The position numbers and the translations under genes were made by a program. Shown in pieces: positions 26,146 to 52,300 of a stretch of DNA of 64,000 nucleotides. The stretch lies in assembly GCA_025449115.1 (NCBI GenBank), contig JAHLKC010000029.1, positions 248,001-312,000 of the forward strand, written 5' to 3'. The stretch comes from Chytridium lagenaria (Eukaryota; Chytridiomycota; Chytridiomycetes; Chytridiales; Chytridiaceae). A model generated the notes under the pieces. That model made no database searches. It was not told where the DNA came from and worked only from the letters and a program-made list of their open reading frames with translations. The stretch's first letter is position 1, and each line of letters begins with the position of its first letter.

Positions 26146-29100
26146 ATGGCTGACGACTTTGAAGTGAGCTTTCTCAAGCTGCACACTATCGGAGTCTCTG
26201 AAACGGCTGCTCCCGCCCTGAAGCAAGTCGACGTCGACGTATGTGCCACTGTATATAAGGTATTTGATGATCAATGCATTTTTACTGTCAACTAGCATCT
26301 ATCACACATGTTCCCCATCGATTTATACACTGATGTTCTTACTATTGCTCTAGTCGAGCAGTGATGATTTTCCACTTCATGGCATCTCTCTGAAGTACCT
26401 GCACCAGTTTGCGGAAGCATGTGGTGGCCATGCTGCGCTGGAAGGCCTCTCCACGCAGGACGTCTGTACAAAGTTCATTATCCCGGCAACACAGAAAACC
26501 GGAACATCCGCCTGCGACATCCTGCTTTCCTTTGATCGACAAGACGCAGTGTCAAAGGCAACCTGGTTCGTCAGCCACGTCTGGAGATATCACTTCCTTG
26601 ATGTCCTTGATGCACTTGACTCATTCTTTTCGGATCAAGAACCCGAGTCCACCTTTGTCTGGTTCGACCTTTTCACTAACTCTCAACATAACACTAGTAA
26701 ACGACCAGTGGAATGGTGGAAGACAACATTCATGAACGCCGTAAAAAACCATCCGAAATTTCGTTGTTATTCTTCAACCATGGGACAACCCCGATCCTCT
26801 CACTCGCGCATGGTGCGTCTTTGAGTTATACGCATGCCGCATGACCAACAGCAATTTTAATGTCGCAATGACTCGAGCAGAGGAGCAGAGGTTTGTCGAA
26901 AACGTCTCAAACGATGCCGCGGCCTTTTACAAGATGTTGGCGACCATTCAATCCAGTAAGGCGACCGCAATGAGCCTTTCGGACAGAGACGATATATTCA
27001 GAGTCATTGAAGAGAATACGGGGTTCACTGAGCTGGATCGACTGCTACTCAGTGTTCTTTGGCGAGTGGATGCAGGGAAAAGTTGCTGGGACGAATTGAG
27101 AGCGCTGAAGGAGACATAAACATCGCCATGTGGGAATCAACGTTGGGAACACTTTACCAAGAACAAGGCCTTTATGACAAGGCCGAGCCTTTGCTCCTCG
27201 ACTGTATTGAGAGAACGACACGCGTTTGGGTGAGAACCATGGCGGACTCCTTACTTGTCTCAATAATCTCGGTCAGCTATACGCCCAGCAAGGCCTGTAC
27301 GATAAAGCTGAGCTTTTATTTGTCGACGGCCTTGAGAGGACGAAGAACATTTTGGGAGAGGACCATCCGGATACCCTTACTTCACTCCACAACCTGGCAG
27401 CTCTTTACAATAGCTTAACGCATTATGACAAAGCTGTGCCTTTGTATGTTGACTGTTATGAAAGGAAAAAACGAGTTCAAGGGGAGGACTACCCAGATAC
27501 CCTCACAACTCTTAACAACCTCGCTTTGGTCTACTTCAATCAAGGGATTTATGATAAGGCTGAACCTTTGTTTCTCGAATGTGTCAATAGGAGGAAAAGT
27601 ACTTTAGGGGAAAATCATCCGGACACCCTCAACACCCTTCACAACTTCGCACTGCTTTACAACAATCAAGGTCTTTTTGATAAAGCTGCACTTTTATTGG
27701 TCAACTGCGTCAAGGGAAAAACCCGTGTTTTGGGGCCGGACCATCCAGATACCTTAGATTCTCTTGGTTCCCTCGCTCACCTGTATGCCATCAAGGTCTT
27801 TACGAAAAAGCCGAATTTCTGTTTGTAGACTGTCTCGAAAGAAAAAAAACGGGTTCTCGGGGAGGACCATCCGAACACCTTTTCTTTTTCTCAGTAGCCT
27901 CGTTCAAGTGTACGCCAGCCAGGGTTTCTACGACAAGGCCGAACGTTTGAATGTGGACTACCTCGATAGGACGACACGGATTCTTGGGGAGGACCATCCA
28001 GAAACCCTTACTTCTCTTCGAAGCCTTTCTCTGTTGTACGCCAATCAAGGTCTATATGAAAAGGCTGAACCTTTGCATCTAGACTGTCTCGAGAGGACAA
28101 AACGTATCGCGGGGAGGACCATGCGGACACTTTTTGTTTCTCTCAATAACCTCGCTCTGCTTTACGCCAACCAAGGTTTCTTTGATAAGGCCAGAACCCT
28201 TGTACGTTGATTGCCTCGAGAGGACAAAGCGTGTTCTTGGGGACAGCCATCCGTCCGTCATCAATCCTATAAACAACCTCGCTATGCTTTACAGCAACCA
28301 AGGTCATTACGCCAAGGCAGAGCCTTTATATGTCGATTGCTTTGAGAAGGCGAAAGGTACTTTGGGGGAGGATCATCCAAACACCCTCAAAAATTATGAA
28401 ACAACCTGGCTGTTCTGTACACCAATCTAGGTTTAGCTGATAAGGCCAAAACTTTGCATGCTGACTGCCAAGAGAGAATGAATCGTGTTTTAGGGAAAGA
28501 CCATTTAGACACCATAAACTCTCTCGATAGCATCGCTTCCTTATATGTCAAACAAGGTCTTTACGAGAAGGCTGAAAAGATATATGCCGACTGCCTTGAG
28601 AGGAGGAAACGTTCGCAGGGGAAGATCATGTGGACACGATCACTGCTCTTAATACTCTCGCCCTGCTGTACTCAAACCAAGGATATTTCGATAAAGCTGA
28701 ACGTCTTAACATTGACTGCATTCAGCGTGCGAAGTGCAGTCTTGGGGAAAACCATCCAACCACCCTGACTTTCCTCGCTAACCTCGCACTTCTATACGTA
28801 CGCCAAGGACTCTTTGACAAGGCTGAACCTCTTTATGTCGACTGCCTTGAGAGGACAACACTTAATCAAGGGGAGGATCATCCTGATGCCTTCACTGCCC
28901 TTGACAGCCTAGCGAATCTCTACAATTCTCAAAGTCTCTATAAAAAGGCTGAACTCTTATACGTCGACTGCCTTGAGAGGAAGAAACGCGTCTTGGGAAA
29001 GACCATTTTGACACTCTCATCTCTTTGGACAACCTAGCACATTTTTACAATAACCAAAGTCTTCACGACATGGCTGAGCCATTATACATTGATTGCCTTA

Positions 29101-29621
29101 CCCGGAAAAGGAGTGTTTTAGGGGAGGATCATCCGTCCACCCTCCTCTCGATCAGCAACCTGGCAGCTTTTTACTTCCACCAGGGTCTCTTAGTCAAAGC
29201 GGAGCCTTTGCAGGTTGAAGTTCTTGAGAGGACGAAGCGTGTATTAGGAGAGGAACATCCAGACGCTCTCTTACTTGTCAATAATCTCGCAAAGCTGTAC
29301 GCTAAACAGGGTCACTATGATAGGGCTGAACCTATGCTTGTCGATTGCCTCGAAAAGAAGAAACTCACTTTGGGAGAGGACCATTGGAGTACCCTCGCTT
29401 CTCTCAACAGTTTGGCAGATTTTTATCATGGCCAAGGCCTTTATGACAAGGCTAAGGCTTTATATGCTGATTGTCTTGAGAGGAGGAAACGGGTTTTGGG
29501 GGAGGATCATCCGGATACCTTAATGTCCTGTAAAAACCTCGCCAAGCTCCATGAGAGTAAAGCGAGCACCGATGGAGCTGTACAAGATGAGACATATTCA
29601 AAGTGGTGCGTAATTATGTAA
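26146..29621 (+). CDS. TIR-like / 19xTPR protein with C-terminal CaaX box
   Basis: NLR-like sensor candidate. A short exon 1 (MADDFEVSFLKLHTIGVSET) leads to FPLHGISLKYLHQFAEACGG and STQDVCTKFI. Next is an alpha/beta module: ATWFVSHVWRYHFLDVLDAL, STFVWFDLFTNSQ, EWWKTTFMNAV, and after a frame slip FVVILQPWDNPDPLTRAWCV followed by FELYAC. Its order (FVSH strand, WFD, hydrophobic strand, WCxxE) resembles a TIR domain, including the Glu at the NADase position; this is inference. From 27140 come 19 kinesin-light-chain-type TPR units (LGEDHPDTL, DKAEPLYVDCLER). The chain ends CVIM, a farnesylation CaaX box. There is no NACHT or NB-ARC domain between. At least eight single-base slips (e.g. 26745, 27230, 28108, 28616, 28997) lie in homopolymers. 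Confidence 0.8.
27140..29560 (+). repeat. 19 tandem TPR units, 126-bp period
   Basis: The DKAEP-coding core recurs at about 27171, 27297, 27421, 27549, 27675, 27801, 27928, 28054, 28180, 28306, 28437, 28561, 28687, 28813, 28939, 29065, 29190, 29318 and 29445: 42 codons per unit. Units are diverged at the DNA level, so the array is old rather than freshly amplified. The near-constant spacing shows that frame breaks are one-base events, not unit losses. Confidence 0.85.
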
Positions 29622-29874: not shown

Positions 29875-32800
29875 TTGGTCAACTTGACAAACTTCATTTG
29901 GAAAAGCATGTTGCAAACTTTCAGATTAGTGAGATGCCAGGCCATGATGGCGTTGCGATGCACTCGCCTAGCGTCATCGTCCGCCATAAATGTGAATGTT
30001 AGGGATCCTGCATACCTAAAGAAGCCCTTACGGAAGACAAAATCAAAGGAATCGCGTGAACTCTCCATGTCCGACGACATGAATGTCCAGACGGTGGCTT
30101 CCACAAAACCAAAACGGTCTCCACCAACCGATGCAAGCGATGGGTATGATATTCGCCAATGCATCAATTAATAGTGATAGTTCTGATAGCAGCCCACCTC
30201 CGAAATCTTTAAAACAAGAGATCCTTCGCATCCAATCCCGCTACCCCAACCACATACTCCTCGTTCAAGTTGGCGGCTTCTACGAAATTTACGAATACGC
30301 TCCTTACATGGAAGAAATCGCACACCTTCTTGGTCTCACTATTGGCGGAAAAGATGTTCGATTTATAGGGTTTCCCATCGCGTCCCTCTCAAAATACGTT
30401 GAGAAACTCCTCGCCGCAGACCGTACAGTTGCTATCGTCGATCAAGTCCATCGGGACACCATGTCTCTCAGTAAGACATTCTCTCGAGATGTTGTGCGCA
30501 TCGTTACGCCTGGGACTGCGTTAAATGAGGACGTGGAGGCGAAAGAAAATACTTTTCTGTTGAGCATACATGCTGGGAAGGAGATGTGTGGATTGGCGTG
30601 GTTGGATGTATGTACTGGAGAGTTTCTGGTATCGAGATGCCATGCTTCCGAACTTATTACGAAGCTAGGCAGAATTGCGCCACGAGAAGTGTTGGTGTCT
30701 GAGAAACTCGATCCCATTCTTGCAGACTCTTTAAAGGCAAAATCAAAGACTTTGGGATTTTATCTTACCACTATACCCGCATCCTTGTTTGCTTTACCGT
30801 TCTCAGGTTCGGCAGTCAAGAAGTCGGCATTTGGGAGATCTTTGGACCCGAATATCCCTAACGAGGCTTTAAGAGCTGTCGAGGCTACGATGGCTTACGT
30901 AAAAGAAACTTTTGTGGCCCAAGATCTTCATATGCAGCCTTTGGAACCTCTGAATGAAGATGACGTTATGCAAAATTGATTCGGCGGCATTGATGTCATT
31001 GGAGATTGTACGAACCATACGGGAGAACGCGAAACGAGGATCCCTGCTTCATAATCTTGATCATACGAAGACGGCTGCAGGAGGGCGTCTCCTTTCCCGA
31101 AGATTAAGTATGAAGCCTGCGTAAAAAGGATAAGCGTTTGACATATTTACAGAAAACCCATCCACAAATTTTGATGAAATCACCCGCCAACTTGATATTG
31201 TGGAAGTGTTTCACACAAACTCCTCCTTCCTCCAAGAAATTCGTCATGTCCTCCCGAAGTTCCGGGACGTTGAGCGATACCTTCAACGTATGCGCTTGCG
31301 CGCCACTAAACCGTCTGATTTCGTGGCTGTCATGGAAGCCTTTCGAGCAGTTTCGACCGTTCGTGACCTCATTCATGATTACGTCAGCGCCATGCCACTA
31401 GTACCTCCTTTACCGAATTTTGTGCAATTAACATCATCCCTCCACGACTTCACCGACCTTATGACTCGTTTCGATAATCTTTTCGCATCGGAAAAGGTCC
31501 CTGCGAAATTTTCTGGACCTGGATTGATTTCGAGGGGATTGTATAGCGAGCTGGATGCTGTACAGGATGAGCTTGAAAAATTAATGCGAAATTCAAGAAA
31601 ACTTGTAAATTCTTTATCGGAGAAGTATGGTGCGTTTGTGTGTTTTCTGAATCAACACCATTTAATAATTTAGGTGTACCCGTCGAGGTGCAGGAAGATC
31701 CTAAGGAGGGGCCGTGCATTACACTGGCGAGTGGGAAAAATGGGATAAGAGCAGACGTGGCGAGATTGATAGATGAGGATGACGAGGTAGAGCCATTAAG
31801 GAGGCAATCACTGATATCGAGGAAGAAGTTCCGACACTCGGTAATTATAAATTTTTAAAAGGGATCTTTTTGACTTATTTTTTACAATGCAGGAATGGAC
31901 GAAGTTGTTTTACGAAATCAAAGCGTGTGAAGAACGGCATATTGCACTTGAAGAGTCTTTGTTTTTAAAAGCATGTGAAGAGGTTGTTTTTTTAAAATCA
32001 TTTTGCTAAAGGTTTAGGTCACAGCGAGGGCTGATGAGATTCTCGAAACCTCCGCTGCGATTGCACATTTAGACGTTGCGTCGGCCCTTGCCCATGTTGC
32101 GCGAGATCGAAAGTATGTAAGGCCTGTGATCACGGAGGAACGTGGGACAGAGATCGTGGAAGGACGACATCCTGTTGTTGAGATGGCGCAGCTTGGAAGG
32201 GATCAAGCGGTGTGTAGACGGGGCAGTTGAAGCGGTGTAACTAATATACCTAGTTTATTCCTAACACGCTTAAATTAAATGACAAGGATAATATTTGGTT
32301 GGTGACAGGGGTAAAATTGTGTAGTGCTGAGGTGATAATTTAACCTTTTTTCCTATTTATTGTCTTTATAAATAGCCTAACATGGGAGGAAAAAGTACGT
32401 TCCTTCGTCAATGGTAAGACGAATATGAATTTTTGTACTCTTTTACTCAATGTTTCTATACAGCGCCATCATATCCGTCATGGCTCAGGCCGGCTGCTTC
32501 GTTCCTGCCTCCTACGCTCGCCTCGGTATAGTCGACCGCATTTTTTCCCGTGTAGGATCCAGCGACGACCTTGGCTCAAACCAATCGACATTTATGGTAC
32601 TTGCGATTCGCTATCAAATCCTCATGTATTGTATTGTATAGGTTGAAATGGCTGAAACTGCCAATATTCTCAAAAACGCAACTCCGCGTAGTCTCGTTAT
32701 CATGGATGAAGTGGGGAGAGGCACGTCCACGCATGATGGTGTATCACTTGCCCTTGCCATTATAAAGCATTTGATGCATGTGAACAAGGCTAGGACGATT

Positions 32801-37061: not shown

Positions 37062-40000
37062 ATGCCTCCTCCACAGAGGCAGAAGAGACAGACCCAGAAA
37101 GCGAGGACTAGTCGACATTCTCTTTTGATCAGCGACGCAGTGAAGAGGTAAGGCGCGTGCGCACAGTTCCAATCTAAGTCATACTCAGTGCAGAACAGCC
37201 GGATGACGACAGTGATTGCTCTTCCGAGTCAGATTTAACTTCGAGTTACTCATACAAGAGCTTATCATGCTCTTCGGAAAGCGACCTGGAAGACTCTGAT
37301 GAGGATGAGATACGAAGTGCTCATGAGAAGGCTATTATGGGCACCAAAACCACTTTGAATGGCCCTATTACGACGCATCGAAGCGCTGGAACGATGGCTG
37401 CTTGGATTTTGGCTACAGAGTCAAACGCAAACGGACTTCACCTTTTAAAGAAAAACGCGCTAGAGAAGCATACAGGCTTTGGCTCGACCAGTCTCACGTC
37501 ATCAGATATCGTTCGCCAAACTACGTTAACCAAAGTTGTTTCTTCAACACGACAACCCAAAAACGAAATTAAGGAGACTCGTGAAAACCGACAAGGCCTT
37601 CGCTATACAGGATTGACTCAAAGAACGGACCAACGACATCGTCAGGCAATCAAAAGGGGGCTGAAGGAAACTGGTGGAGGGATCCTACAATACATGAAAC
37701 GATTGAAAAGAAGTGAAAACACCGTTAAGGAGGCTGTGGATCCAAAGGATTCGCGCATTGAGTTCGAGTTCGATGAAAATGCAACAATTCCGAACAACGT
37801 GCCAGATGGAGATGGAAATGCAATTGTGGGGACGGAGTCGTTGGATGTTGATAACAAGACGATTTTTGATGCTATGAATTTCGACGTTAACATGGACTAT
37901 GAGCCTGGATTGGTTCAAAATAACCACCTGCATCACCTAACGAAGGAGGGTAGCGCGGCTATTGACTCCATGAATGGCGAAACAAGCTGGTACAACGATT
38001 CCGCCATCAATGCTCCCCTCGAATACGTTTGCAAGAAGCAAAATATCGCTTTTATTAATTCGCTGAGTGTTTCCCATCCCGTTCCAAAAAGTAAGCTGTT
38101 TCATTTTAAAGCTCAAGCTGATAATACTCTTTAGTATCGTTGAACCGCCCACAAAACCGTACCGCTGGATTTAAAAAGTTCCTAACCCCAATTAATCGAG
38201 AAAGTCACTGGATTATTCTTTCGGGGGTTCTTGACGAAGAAAACCAGCGTTGGGACGTTGAAATATGGAATTCCTGTGATAGTACCCATCTTCTGTCTGG
38301 ATTCTATCGTCGCCATTGTTTCGAACATATACAAGCATGGGTCAACTTTAGAACGATGTCGTCATATACATTTACGGAGCCAAAAGTTGCTTTTATGCCG
38401 CGACAGTTGGACTCTAGTAGTTGCGGAGCCTTTGCATTAGAGAGTGGTCTGCTTTTTGCTCATGGTCTTCAGTGGAGCTTTACTCCAATAATTCCATGGG
38501 GGGCTATGAATCTTCGAACGCATCAAATACGTATTGTTTATTCCCTTTTACACGCTCGTCTCGAAAATTTCAATGAGGCCACCCAAGGGTTTGAAATCAC
38601 GCCTCTGACATCACAAGTGCAATTGCCGACATTTTCGAACGATGGCGAGGCTGGGGTAGACGCTAAAAACCCCTCTATGGCTGCAGAAGATGAAAACGTG
38701 ATGAACAACAAAATTTCGGCGCTTCTGCAAGCATCCCCTCGCGGCTCACGTTGCCTGGAGGATGCTCTTATGCAAACTTCACAAGATATAGAGACGTTAA
38801 AGAAGGAAAATGAGGAGGGGAGGACTATTTGGATTATTTATGCAGTCAAAACTGCATTAACCCTTATTTTGGGTGATCCACAAACATCTCGAGATGAAGT
38901 ATATAAGTGAGTGATATTCAACATGTTTATTTTCGTCACCTTTAATTAATCTTAAACAGATATGTTGCTCAAATATTCATTCCTGACGCTGGACCCTGGA
39001 GTGCTCGCCGCATTCGCCGAATGGTCCTTTATTATCTCGTCAATCGGAGGGCTCTTCCTGATAAGCGTGGCAAGCACGGAAACCGAATGTCTATCTTAAA
39101 CATACCTGAGGTGTCAAAGCCGTTGGACGCGTGGTTAGAGACTCGCCACAAATTTACGATTGAAGATGCGACAAAGTGGGTGAACATCTACCTGCGAGAG
39201 TGTAGATTGTTGAGTGACAAGGAGTCTGTAACTCAACAAACCGTACGGCGCAAACTCAAAGGTCTCGGCTACATGAAAATGATGAAGAAGAAGGGGATTT
39301 ATATTGATGGTCACGAGAGACCTGATGTTGTGAGAGCTCGCGGCCACTACCTAGACCGAATGGCAGCGATGGAGCCCCAGAAGGCGCTGTTTTCCTCATC
39401 ATCATCTTCCGATCAACTTGATTTGGCCGCGCTCCCTCAGAACGGGCCACGAATCATAGATGTTTATCAAGATGAAACCGTGTGCTACTTTAATGACAGC
39501 GGGAAGTTCTTTTGGGGAAAGAAGGGCGACACAATTCTGGAACCAAAGACCCCCGGTGTTGGCGTCATGATATCAGACTTTATTTGTGAAGACGTTGGAT
39601 TATTGCAATATACAAGCCATGACGGCATCGGTGAATCTGCGAGGGTGGCCATGGTTATTGGAAATGGCCAAGATGGTTATTTCAAAGGCGATGACGTGTG
39701 CCAGCAGCTACAGCATGCGATCACTATCTTCAAGAAGGCTTTTCCTGGATGCATCGGGAATTTTATTTACGATAACAGCACCAATCACTGTTCCGTTCCA
39801 AGTGATGCTTTGGTGGTGTCGAGAGTGGCTTGGAGGTCGGGGGTCAACAGAGTGTGATGCGCGCCACAGAGTATGTTCATGCTAGCCAGCGAGAGCTACC
39901 AGTAGCCCTGCAAGTGAAGATTAAACAAGACCTCGTGTTCACAGAAGGTGTATTGAAGGGACAGCCAAAAGGATGCCAGGTGATATTGGGAGAAAGAGGA

Positions 40001-49374: not shown

Positions 49375-52300
49375 CTATCCAAAAAGCTCCGCTTCATACT
49401 CTTCTTCGCCCTGCTGGGCCCTAGCGAAAACCCCATCAGTCGGCTTCACTCCAGCATCATCGTATGCATTAAAGTACTCGCTAATTCTATAGCTAGCATT
49501 TGGCTGGTCAACATACACTTCCCCTTCTCCATCGATAATAACCTCTTCATCATAAATCTCCACCTCGTTGTCAACGTCAGCCTTGACCTGGTGCATTCCA
49601 TTTCTGAAAATGCCATCAGAATGCACGTTTGATGGAACTTCACCATCAGATGAGCCATCTCCTCGTGACAAGGACCTTGAAGTGTACATGTCGAGCATGT
49701 GTCCTTCCTCATCACTCCCCCTGTCTCGTCCGTGAGTGAGGCGCTCCCATCTCGTGGAGGAAGAGTATTACTATAATGAAGCTAGTAAGTTTATAATACA
49801 TGCAAGAGCAAACGACGCTTAACAATGACAGCGAGCAACATACCTGTCGTCGATCATGATAAAGCTGTTGCGATTGGTTCGCCTATCTTCCACCCCCGCT
49901 TTATTTTGGTTCCTCGCCATCAACAGACCTGGAGCAATACTCATGCGCGCTTGCTCTCTTCGAGCTTTTTTGGCTGCAATGTTTCGACTCCGCTCATCCA
50001 TACCCTCAGCATCCTCATAATGCGGCTGCATAATAACGACAGAGGGCCCTTCCCCACTAGCCTCCCAAGCTTGCTTCTCCTCCCTCCGAGACTCGGTGCT
50101 ATCCGAATACGCCATTGGGGAAATGTTTATACGCTGTTGCGTGTGGTGATGATGCTGCTGAGGCGTTGGTGGTTGCTGCTGCTGCTGCTGCTGTCTTTCC
50201 TTCTCCGCCTTCTCAACATCAGCCTCAAATTGAGCCTGTCTTCGAAGACTTAACTCACGTTCTTTCCCAAGTCGATCAGCCATCTCCCTCTCACGATCCC
50301 TCATCAATTGCGACTTTTGAGGGTCTTCCCAGCAGAACACGTGATCATACTCTGCCATCATCAGCGTCAAGACAACGACTGGGATGCCGAGGGTTGGAGA
50401 GAAAACAATGCCGACGTTACGGACAGTCATCTTGTTGATGTCAGAGGCTTGCACAACGCGGACGAGATGGGCGATCATGATTCGGAGAAGAGTGTAATTG
50501 GTTAAAGGTAGTTTGGAGACGAGGCGCGAAAGCTCTGTTATCCTGTCAGTACGATCTTGAATCTCAGTGATGCGGATGAAATCTTTTTGCAGGTGCTTCG
50601 TTAGGACTGGAGTAAGATTCTGCAGCTCACGAAGATAGAGCTTCAAAAGTCCAGCGATGGCATGAACGTCGTAACGCTCTCCAGACCCTAAGAGATCAAC
50701 ATCACCTTCGTTGTTGAATCGGTCCTTCAACATCTGGATGATGGATGACAGGCCGGAAAGACGATATATACCCTCTTCCTCAAAAGCGTGCATCGCATCG
50801 AGATACTCGATGCAACGGTAAACAACAGAGGGAAGTTCATACATGTCGTTTACGCGAGAAACTGCAACGCTTTGGTCAAGAGGTACACCGAAAACCACGC
50901 GTGCAGGATCAGGCGAACGAACACCTGATCCTGCTCCACCGGCCATACCAGCTGCGATAGCAAGATCAGAGGTCGCCTTCTTCTTTGCCCAGTTAAATGC
51001 CGTGGTGATCCTCTTGCTCGCATTTCCACGCTTATCATCTATACGAGGTGACGCCGTTAAATTGGAAGTGCCACTGGACACTCCACGACCCGCCCTGGAT
51101 GTGGCGTCTTCAACGGCCAACGAAGGTGGGGACTGCTGCATGATGCGAGCGCTCTCATCGACGAAACCTCTTCCATGGCGCGCTGCACTGTCTTGAGCAA
51201 TTCCTTGGCTCCCTGCGAAACCAGCCGCAGGATGAGGTGCTGTGGGAAGGCCGCCTGCGCGATTAGTTGCCGGGCGTGGGTGGCGAGGAATTGGAGTGCC
51301 GCAGCCTGGGCCTGCCCAGGAGCGTACTGTGTGTTGGGGCTTCTTGATTGGAAGGACTGGTGGCCACCTCCATGAGGCATTTGAGTATGACTGGGGTGAT
51401 GATGGGATTGGTGTAGGCCGTTTTGCAAGGCGTTCGAGGGGGCATTGACAGAAAGACTGCTAGAAGGATTGTGAGACAATGGGATCCACTGAGATCTCCG
51501 GCGTTCCCTCGAGCATGGAACGAAGGAGGCGGGCCCTGTTCATTGGATCCATCAATACCATTGACGCTACCGCTAATTGCATCATTGCTGAATGAGAGAG
51601 CCTCTCCGCTTCCATTGAAGTGCTCCATACGTGCTCCAGGGCGAACTTCCATTATTTGTTTTGATATGATGCGAACCCATTCGTCTCTTTCGGTGTCACT
51701 TTCCGCGCAGAGCGTGTGTCTTGCAACTACTCGTGATTCTGGAGGCATGGCATCGACGCTTGCGGTTACAGAGAAGGTGCCCGACTTGTACTCGATGAGA
51801 GTAAATGAATGGTATGACTTAACGTCATTACCTTTTCACTCATAGCAAGACAATGACGAAGTTTAATCGTAGAAATGATCTCGCGTCCCTATATACAGCA
51901 GATTTTTATGTCATTATCGATAAATGCAGAGCCACGAAGAGAAACATCTCGTTGAAAGGACATACCGATGCATCATAGTACTCCAAAGCAGTTTGCTTAA
52001 GCTTGAAGTACCTAGTCTTCCATCCTCCAAAACTCTTGCCTTTTTTCACGAGAACGCCTTCCTTCAAAACTTTTGAGCTGGATCCAGTTGGTTTACCCTC
52101 AATTTCCAAGGTCATCGAGTCGCTCCGGCCAATGACCCCATTGACGTTCGTTGTCAAAAACTCGATTACATCTCTTGAATCAGTAACTACGTCAACCACA
52201 CGTTGAAGGTACATCTCCAGGGCGACCTTATGAAAGAAGTCAATACATATTTTTAAAAAAAAGAGAGGAAGAAAGAAATAAGAGTCCAATAATGGATATT

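What the first reader, a model, noticed from the sequence alone, without database searches (positions are those of the whole stretch)
26146..29621. TIR-like / TPR sensor with a C-terminal CVIM farnesylation box
Seen: an N-terminal alpha/beta module with FVSHVW, WFDLFTNSQ and WCVFEL, then 19 TPR units, then a stop right after CVIM. Known: CaaX boxes ending in Met are farnesylated, and TPR arrays of the LGEDHPDTL type serve as the ligand-sensing arm of many fungal NLR-like proteins. Inference: a membrane-tethered sensor with a TIR-like effector and no NTPase domain. From memory, similar N-terminal modules precede repeats in algae and other early eukaryotes, but I do not recall one with a CaaX box. 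This is the best candidate in the window for an undescribed system.
Basis: partly seen in the sequence, partly recalled or inferred. Interest (0 to 1): 0.82.

Follow-up and report, generated by a model that had tools for sequence, protein, structure and literature searches.

The report
Membrane-anchored TIR/HET-like TPR receptor family
A gene in a chytrid fungus belongs to a large, little-described family of probable sensor proteins of microbial eukaryotes, which join an immunity-type domain to a repeat sensor and, in many members, apparently to a membrane by one of several interchangeable anchors.

Summary

The larger finding is the anchor. Among 246 relatives (chytrids, an oomycete, a chrysophyte, a diatom, a choanoflagellate, many unnamed), MGxxxS/T starts and CaaX ends are far above chance, again in a third search. 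In Salpingoeca rosetta 25 of 28 listed members carry one membrane device (7 CaaX, 14 PH, 3 hydrophobic, 1 Cys-Cys tail); paralogues with modules 91-94% identical differ in anchor. Best reading: NTPase-less, membrane-tethered TIR/HET-like TPR sensors. Lipidation, NAD cleavage and defence are inferred. The terminal Cys itself is not conserved, and 164 of 246 show no device by simple tests.

The parts
26146..26259 (+). exon 1 of the gene, start codon and 38 codons (MADDFEVSF...ATVYK)
   Evidence: direct reading; same start in public model P0003
26260..26353 (+). 94-base intron, GT...AG
   Evidence: direct reading; the public model P0003 joins VYK to SSSDDF at this point
26354..27130 (+). N-terminal TIR/HET-like module, read in more than one frame
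   Evidence: the first 139 residues are 79-86% identical to two pieces of paralogue C70 and 47% to C152; 245 other relatives from three protein searches
26567..26584 (+). FVSHVW, first conserved block (S-H-x-W)
   Evidence: S, H and W invariant in 133 of 133 rows without a gap
26660..26686 (+). WFDLFTNSQ, second conserved block
   Evidence: conservation
26811..26828 (+). WCVFEL, third block with the candidate catalytic Glu (codon 26823-26825)
   Evidence: R-x-W-C-x-x-E in 244 of 246 relatives
27131..29561 (+). array of 19 TPR units of about 42 residues plus a capping helix, read in three frames
   Evidence: units counted by eye
29607..29621 (+). codons for the C-terminal CaaX box CVIM, then stop TAA
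   Evidence: public model P0003 also ends CVIM; intact paralogue C70 ends CIIF

Best explanation
The locus encodes one of three Chytridium lagenaria members found here of an old eukaryotic family: an N-terminal TIR/HET-like effector module, a kinesin-light-chain-type TPR array as the sensor arm, and a membrane anchor. In this member and in paralogue C70 the anchor is a C-terminal prenylation box; in C152 it is probably an N-terminal myristoyl (plus palmitoyl) group. Likely mechanism: the anchor holds the protein on a membrane; ligand binding to the TPR array, or loss of a bound guard, lets neighbouring modules meet on the membrane surface; the module then acts through the conserved glutamate, most likely on NAD or a related nucleotide, and triggers a defence or cell-death response. 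Concentration in two dimensions would do the job that an NB-ARC or NACHT domain does in NLRs. Shown here: domain order, conservation of the motif, TIR-like predicted fold (modest scores), excess of membrane-targeting ends, different anchors on close paralogues, low dN against high dS in the module. Inferred: lipid attachment, membrane location, oligomerisation, enzyme activity, role in defence. The frame changes in the window copy are more likely assembly errors in a repeat-rich gene than decay, but this is not settled.
Confidence: 0.6

Rival explanations
1. The window copy is a decaying pseudogene of this family; the CaaX box is a leftover and C70 is the working gene.
For: At least 10 frame changes in about 3.2 kb, while C70 and C152 are open for 630 and 661 codons, so one uniform error rate does not explain the difference.
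Against: 0 stops inside any of the 11 segments; low dN against high dS to C70 in the module pieces; C70 and C152 each also seem to change frame once within the module (by eye; an intron is not excluded); repeat arrays are where polishing fails most easily (general knowledge).
Confidence: 0.35
2. It is a kinesin light chain relative or another cargo adaptor, as the databases name it.
For: TPR units are of the KLC type; the best PDB matches of the P0007 model are KLC TPR domains; many public names are 'Kinesin light chain 3'.
Against: The N-terminal half is a conserved alpha/beta module; KLC has a coiled coil there (recalled).
Confidence: 0.08
3. The module is a TIR-like scaffold without enzyme activity; the protein is a membrane-bound adaptor.
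For: Many animal TIRs signal by contact only (recalled); a shared fold shows no activity.
Against: R, W, C and E of the third block are present in 244 of 246 relatives from chytrids to a choanoflagellate; the searches favour shared words, so this is somewhat inflated.
Confidence: 0.3
4. The CVIM box is a chance end.
For: Near relatives P0001 and P0002 lack it; a Cys at -4 is expected by chance in about 3 of 135 proteins, 8 seen.
Against: C70 ends CIIF in a clean frame; strict CaaX is 17 of 246 against 1.0 expected.
Confidence: 0.07

Closest known systems
TIR domains (plant TIR-NLRs, SARM1, bacterial TIRs)
   Same: Predicted fold and order of strands and helices; W-x-x-x-E motif in the helix after the third core strand
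   Different: No match over a curated Pfam cut-off seen; extra N-terminal helical part; N-x-Q after the second strand, which I do not recall in TIRs; no NB-ARC, LRR or SAM partner seen
HET domain (PF06985) of fungal incompatibility proteins
   Same: Three blocks look alike: S-[HY]-x-W, W-x-D-x-x-x-N-x-Q, R-x-W-x-x-x-E (HET side recalled; partly seen in this genome's HET protein); PdTIR, the one PDB sequence hit of the core profile, is also among the two best HHpred hits reported for HET (PMC4986451, section 16 read)
   Different: No HET hit among the families listed for 21 module-only members; hhalign with the own-genome HET not significant
Fungal NLR-like receptors, some with TPR sensors or TIR/HET effectors (PMC10197012 and PMC9815663, passages)
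   Same: N-terminal effector-type module and C-terminal repeat array
   Different: No NTPase seen; membrane device instead
Kinesin light chain
   Same: TPR unit type; database name
   Different: Alpha/beta module in place of the N-terminal coiled coil (recalled for KLC); membrane device

Membership tests
TIR domain | TIR fold | tested here: met
TIR domain | Pfam TIR/TIR_2 above curated cut-off | tested here: not met
   TIR_2 in 16 of 80 and 9 of 21 members, best E 0.0053; bit scores of those members are not shown, but such an E is far from the 28-bit cut-off (my inference)
TIR domain | conserved Glu in the helix after the third core strand (W-x-x-x-E) | tested here: met
   RxWCxxE in 244 of 246; E166 of P0101 in helix 161-172 after strand 144-148. 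Residue-level superposition not seen
TIR domain | NAD cleavage or TIR-TIR assembly | not testable with these tools
   needs protein
HET domain | Pfam PF06985 match | tested here: not met
   no HET among the 21 families listed, up to E 10, for 21 members, nor for C70 and the C152 module
HET domain | three conserved blocks | tested here: inconclusive
   blocks look alike by eye, HET consensus recalled; hhalign not significant
HET domain | induces cell death | not testable with these tools
   needs cells
NLR | NB-ARC or NACHT NTPase | tested here: not met
   none in Pfam scans of five pieces of the gene (28211-28976 not scanned), of C70 and C152, or among the 25 of 166 families shown for 80 relatives
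Kinesin light chain | KLC-type TPR array | tested here: met
   (relative P0007)
Kinesin light chain | N-terminal coiled coil that binds kinesin heavy chain | tested here: not met
   that place holds an alpha/beta module in the models of P0007 and P0101; no coiled-coil program was run
Prenylated CaaX proteins | CaaX at the very C terminus | tested here: met
   CVIM then stop, CIIF then stop in C70
Prenylated CaaX proteins | prenyl group attached | not testable with these tools
   prenyltransferase-repeat genes exist in the genome, no more

The most novel reading that the evidence does not exclude
A single family of NTPase-less TIR/HET-like TPR immune receptors spans chytrid fungi, stramenopiles and choanoflagellates; membrane tethering is its defining requirement, and the anchor (myristoyl start, prenyl tail, PH domain, hydrophobic hairpin) is an exchangeable cassette. 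Tethering in two dimensions replaces NTPase-driven assembly, and the module is a NAD-consuming effector that sits between TIR and HET in evolution.
Probability: 0.35. Interest if true: 0.88.

Novelty: new variant of a known kind. Interest (0 to 1): 0.74.

Why it matters
If true, it would give early-branching fungi and a close relative of animals a common class of intracellular receptor that works without the switch domain thought central to NLRs. The S. rosetta set, with near-identical modules on different anchors, makes a direct test possible: same effector, different membrane device, what changes. It may also help to settle how HET and TIR domains are related.

Tried and rejected
Kinesin light chain as function: set aside, the N-terminal half is something else. 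Viral origin: one scan of viral contigs gave no relative; the best BFVD fold match is a TIR/WD40 protein of Tetraselmis virus 1, E 3.6e-4. Bacterial origin: one scan of prokaryote genomes gave one locus, in a Verrucomicrobiaceae MAG; its neighbouring frames look eukaryotic to me, so I treat it as probable contamination. PADLOC and NCBIfam: no match for the modules of C70 and C152. PDB by sequence with the C70 module: four weak hits, best E 0.0042, none a TIR; with profile A3 nine hits, three protein A entries first, 3h16 TIR sixth at E 0.048. HET or TIR_2 single proteins of this genome against the module profile: not significant. No PDB sequence matches the own-genome HET up to E 1. No HET structure appeared in the VIA list; that excludes nothing.

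Papers: PMC4986451 (section 16 read whole, passages elsewhere); PMC10197012, PMC9815663 and PMC6040629 (passages only); all other papers seen as search listings only (two searches found no paper).

Choices that bear on the counts: the CaaX pattern was written, after I had seen P0001-P0025; P0024 was taken as third query knowing its CCRLM end; CRLM itself does not fit the strict pattern. The alignments for the models hold 80 of the 135 proteins then at hand, chosen by me. P0003 and P0221 lack the motif and are not in the tree, which holds 244 relatives plus C70 and C152.

Full report
What is there. The window is C29:248001-312000 of a 42 Mb genome. The protein search returned P0003, 'hypothetical protein BC829DRAFT_389529 [Chytridium lagenaria]', on a contig of 337472 bases, the length of C29, and its first two exons are those of the window. 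So the organism is the chytrid fungus C. lagenaria (lineage). The gene starts at 26146, has a 94-base intron, then a module of about 260 residues, 19 TPR units and a capping helix by eye, and stops directly after CVIM.

State of the gene. A tblastn comparison with 8 relatives gives 11 segments, at least 10 frame changes, and no stop inside any segment. A protein search of the genome with the first 139 residues of exon 2 found two paralogues: C70, with an open frame of 630 codons, and C152, with 661. Each paralogue also seems to change frame once in the module (by eye), so indel errors in the assembly are likely, but the window copy is much worse. Against C70, three module pieces show dN 0.13, 0.08 and 0.07 and dS 1.97, 1.76 and 1.91; the six TPR pieces scored show dN 0.24-0.40 and dS from 1.0 to saturated, where units may be wrongly paired. 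The module was thus kept by selection for much of its history. Error or recent decay cannot be told apart here.

HET or TIR. The three blocks read S-H-x-W, W-F-D-x-x-x-N-x-Q and R-x-W-C-x-x-E. As I recall the HET domain, its blocks are S-[YH]-x-W, W-x-D-x-x-x-N-x-Q and R-x-W-x-x-x-E; the one HET protein found in this genome shows S-Y-C-W, W-M-D-V-L-C-T-H-Q and R-V-W. Dyrka et al. 2014 found HET homologues in stramenopiles, haptophytes, choanoflagellates and others, with PdTIR among the two best HHpred hits (PMC4986451, section 16). So the module may be a HET-like branch. Formal tests do not show it: no HET among the families listed for 21 members and no significant profile match to one HET protein.

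The anchor. CVIM is matched by CIIF at the end of C70. C152 begins MGCGASK in an exon followed by a short GT..AG intron (my reading); an in-frame ATG lies further upstream, so this start is likely, not proven. I then counted ends. Of the proteins of the first two searches, 31 of 128 with a starting Met begin MGxxxS/T, against 0.6 expected from internal Met in the same proteins; 6 of 135 end in a strict CaaX pattern against 0.64 expected from other tetrapeptides of the last 120 residues. Among the 111 new proteins of the third search the counts are 10 of 108 against 0.58 and 11 of 111 against 0.375. Related sequences are not independent and the third query itself ends CCRLM, which I knew, so the P values printed there overstate the case. 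On a FastTree tree of 246 rows (244 relatives, C70, C152), starred branches force at least 8 changes for prenyl ends and 7 for myristoyl starts among anchored rows; 88 of 243 inner branches are weak, and a change may be a gain, a loss or a missing end. A profile built from five PH tails finds a PH end in 15 of 246, those five included; Pfam PH matches four of four tails tested, E 6e-5 to 2e-7, one of them below the cut-off. Of the 28 proteins named S. rosetta in the listing, 7 have CaaX, 14 PH, 3 a strongly hydrophobic stretch, 1 a Cys-Cys tail and 3 nothing; none has two by these tests, though P0182 has a PH domain and also ends CCVK, which my pattern does not count. Paralogues with modules 91-94% identical carry different devices. 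P0130 (ends CIVS) and P0067 (begins MGGIIT), 74% identical, differ in the same way. In all, 164 of 246 show no device, partly because many are fragments; and P0001 and P0002, the nearest relatives, show none.

How it likely works. A tethered TIR/HET-like effector with a TPR sensor and no NTPase. Tethering would concentrate the modules and let binding at the TPR array decide whether they meet; the conserved Glu suggests catalysis, probably on NAD. The genome has genes matching NMT and prenyltransferase repeats, as a fungus should. Domain order, motif conservation and the excess of anchors are results; activity, lipidation, place in the cell and role in defence are inference.

TIR-like and the Glu hold. 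Conservation of the terminal Cys fails, but in a way that points to something larger: many members keep a membrane device and change its kind.

Noticed in passing
window 49819-51835 (-): RhoGAP gene (Pfam E 1.4e-40) whose frames overlap in a way that suggests frame changes here too.
   Followed up: no
window 30083-31673 (+): MutS-type mismatch repair gene, MutS_I and MutS_II domains in the first piece, directly downstream.
   Followed up: no
window 37178-39857 (+): Adjacent frames that look like a Ulp1-type protease and a DDE transposase (from the letters, recalled motifs); Pfam gave only a chance-level hit for 38946-39857.
   Followed up: no
L018 (C89:61873-65142) and L019-L021 (C36): The same genome has one match to the HET domain and several to TIR_2, the three best of them on contig C36.
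   Followed up: partly
L027:3764-6274 (+): A family member (starts MGCRMAK) in a contig filed as a Verrucomicrobiaceae MAG; neighbouring frames look eukaryotic, so probably contamination of that MAG.
   Followed up: partly
P0001, P0002, P0004, P0008-P0010 and others: Public records name many of these proteins 'Kinesin light chain 3', which the N-terminal module does not support.
   Followed up: partly
P0115, P0017, P0207: Further relatives with long hydrophobic or Cys-rich C-terminal ends, possibly more kinds of membrane device.
   Followed up: no
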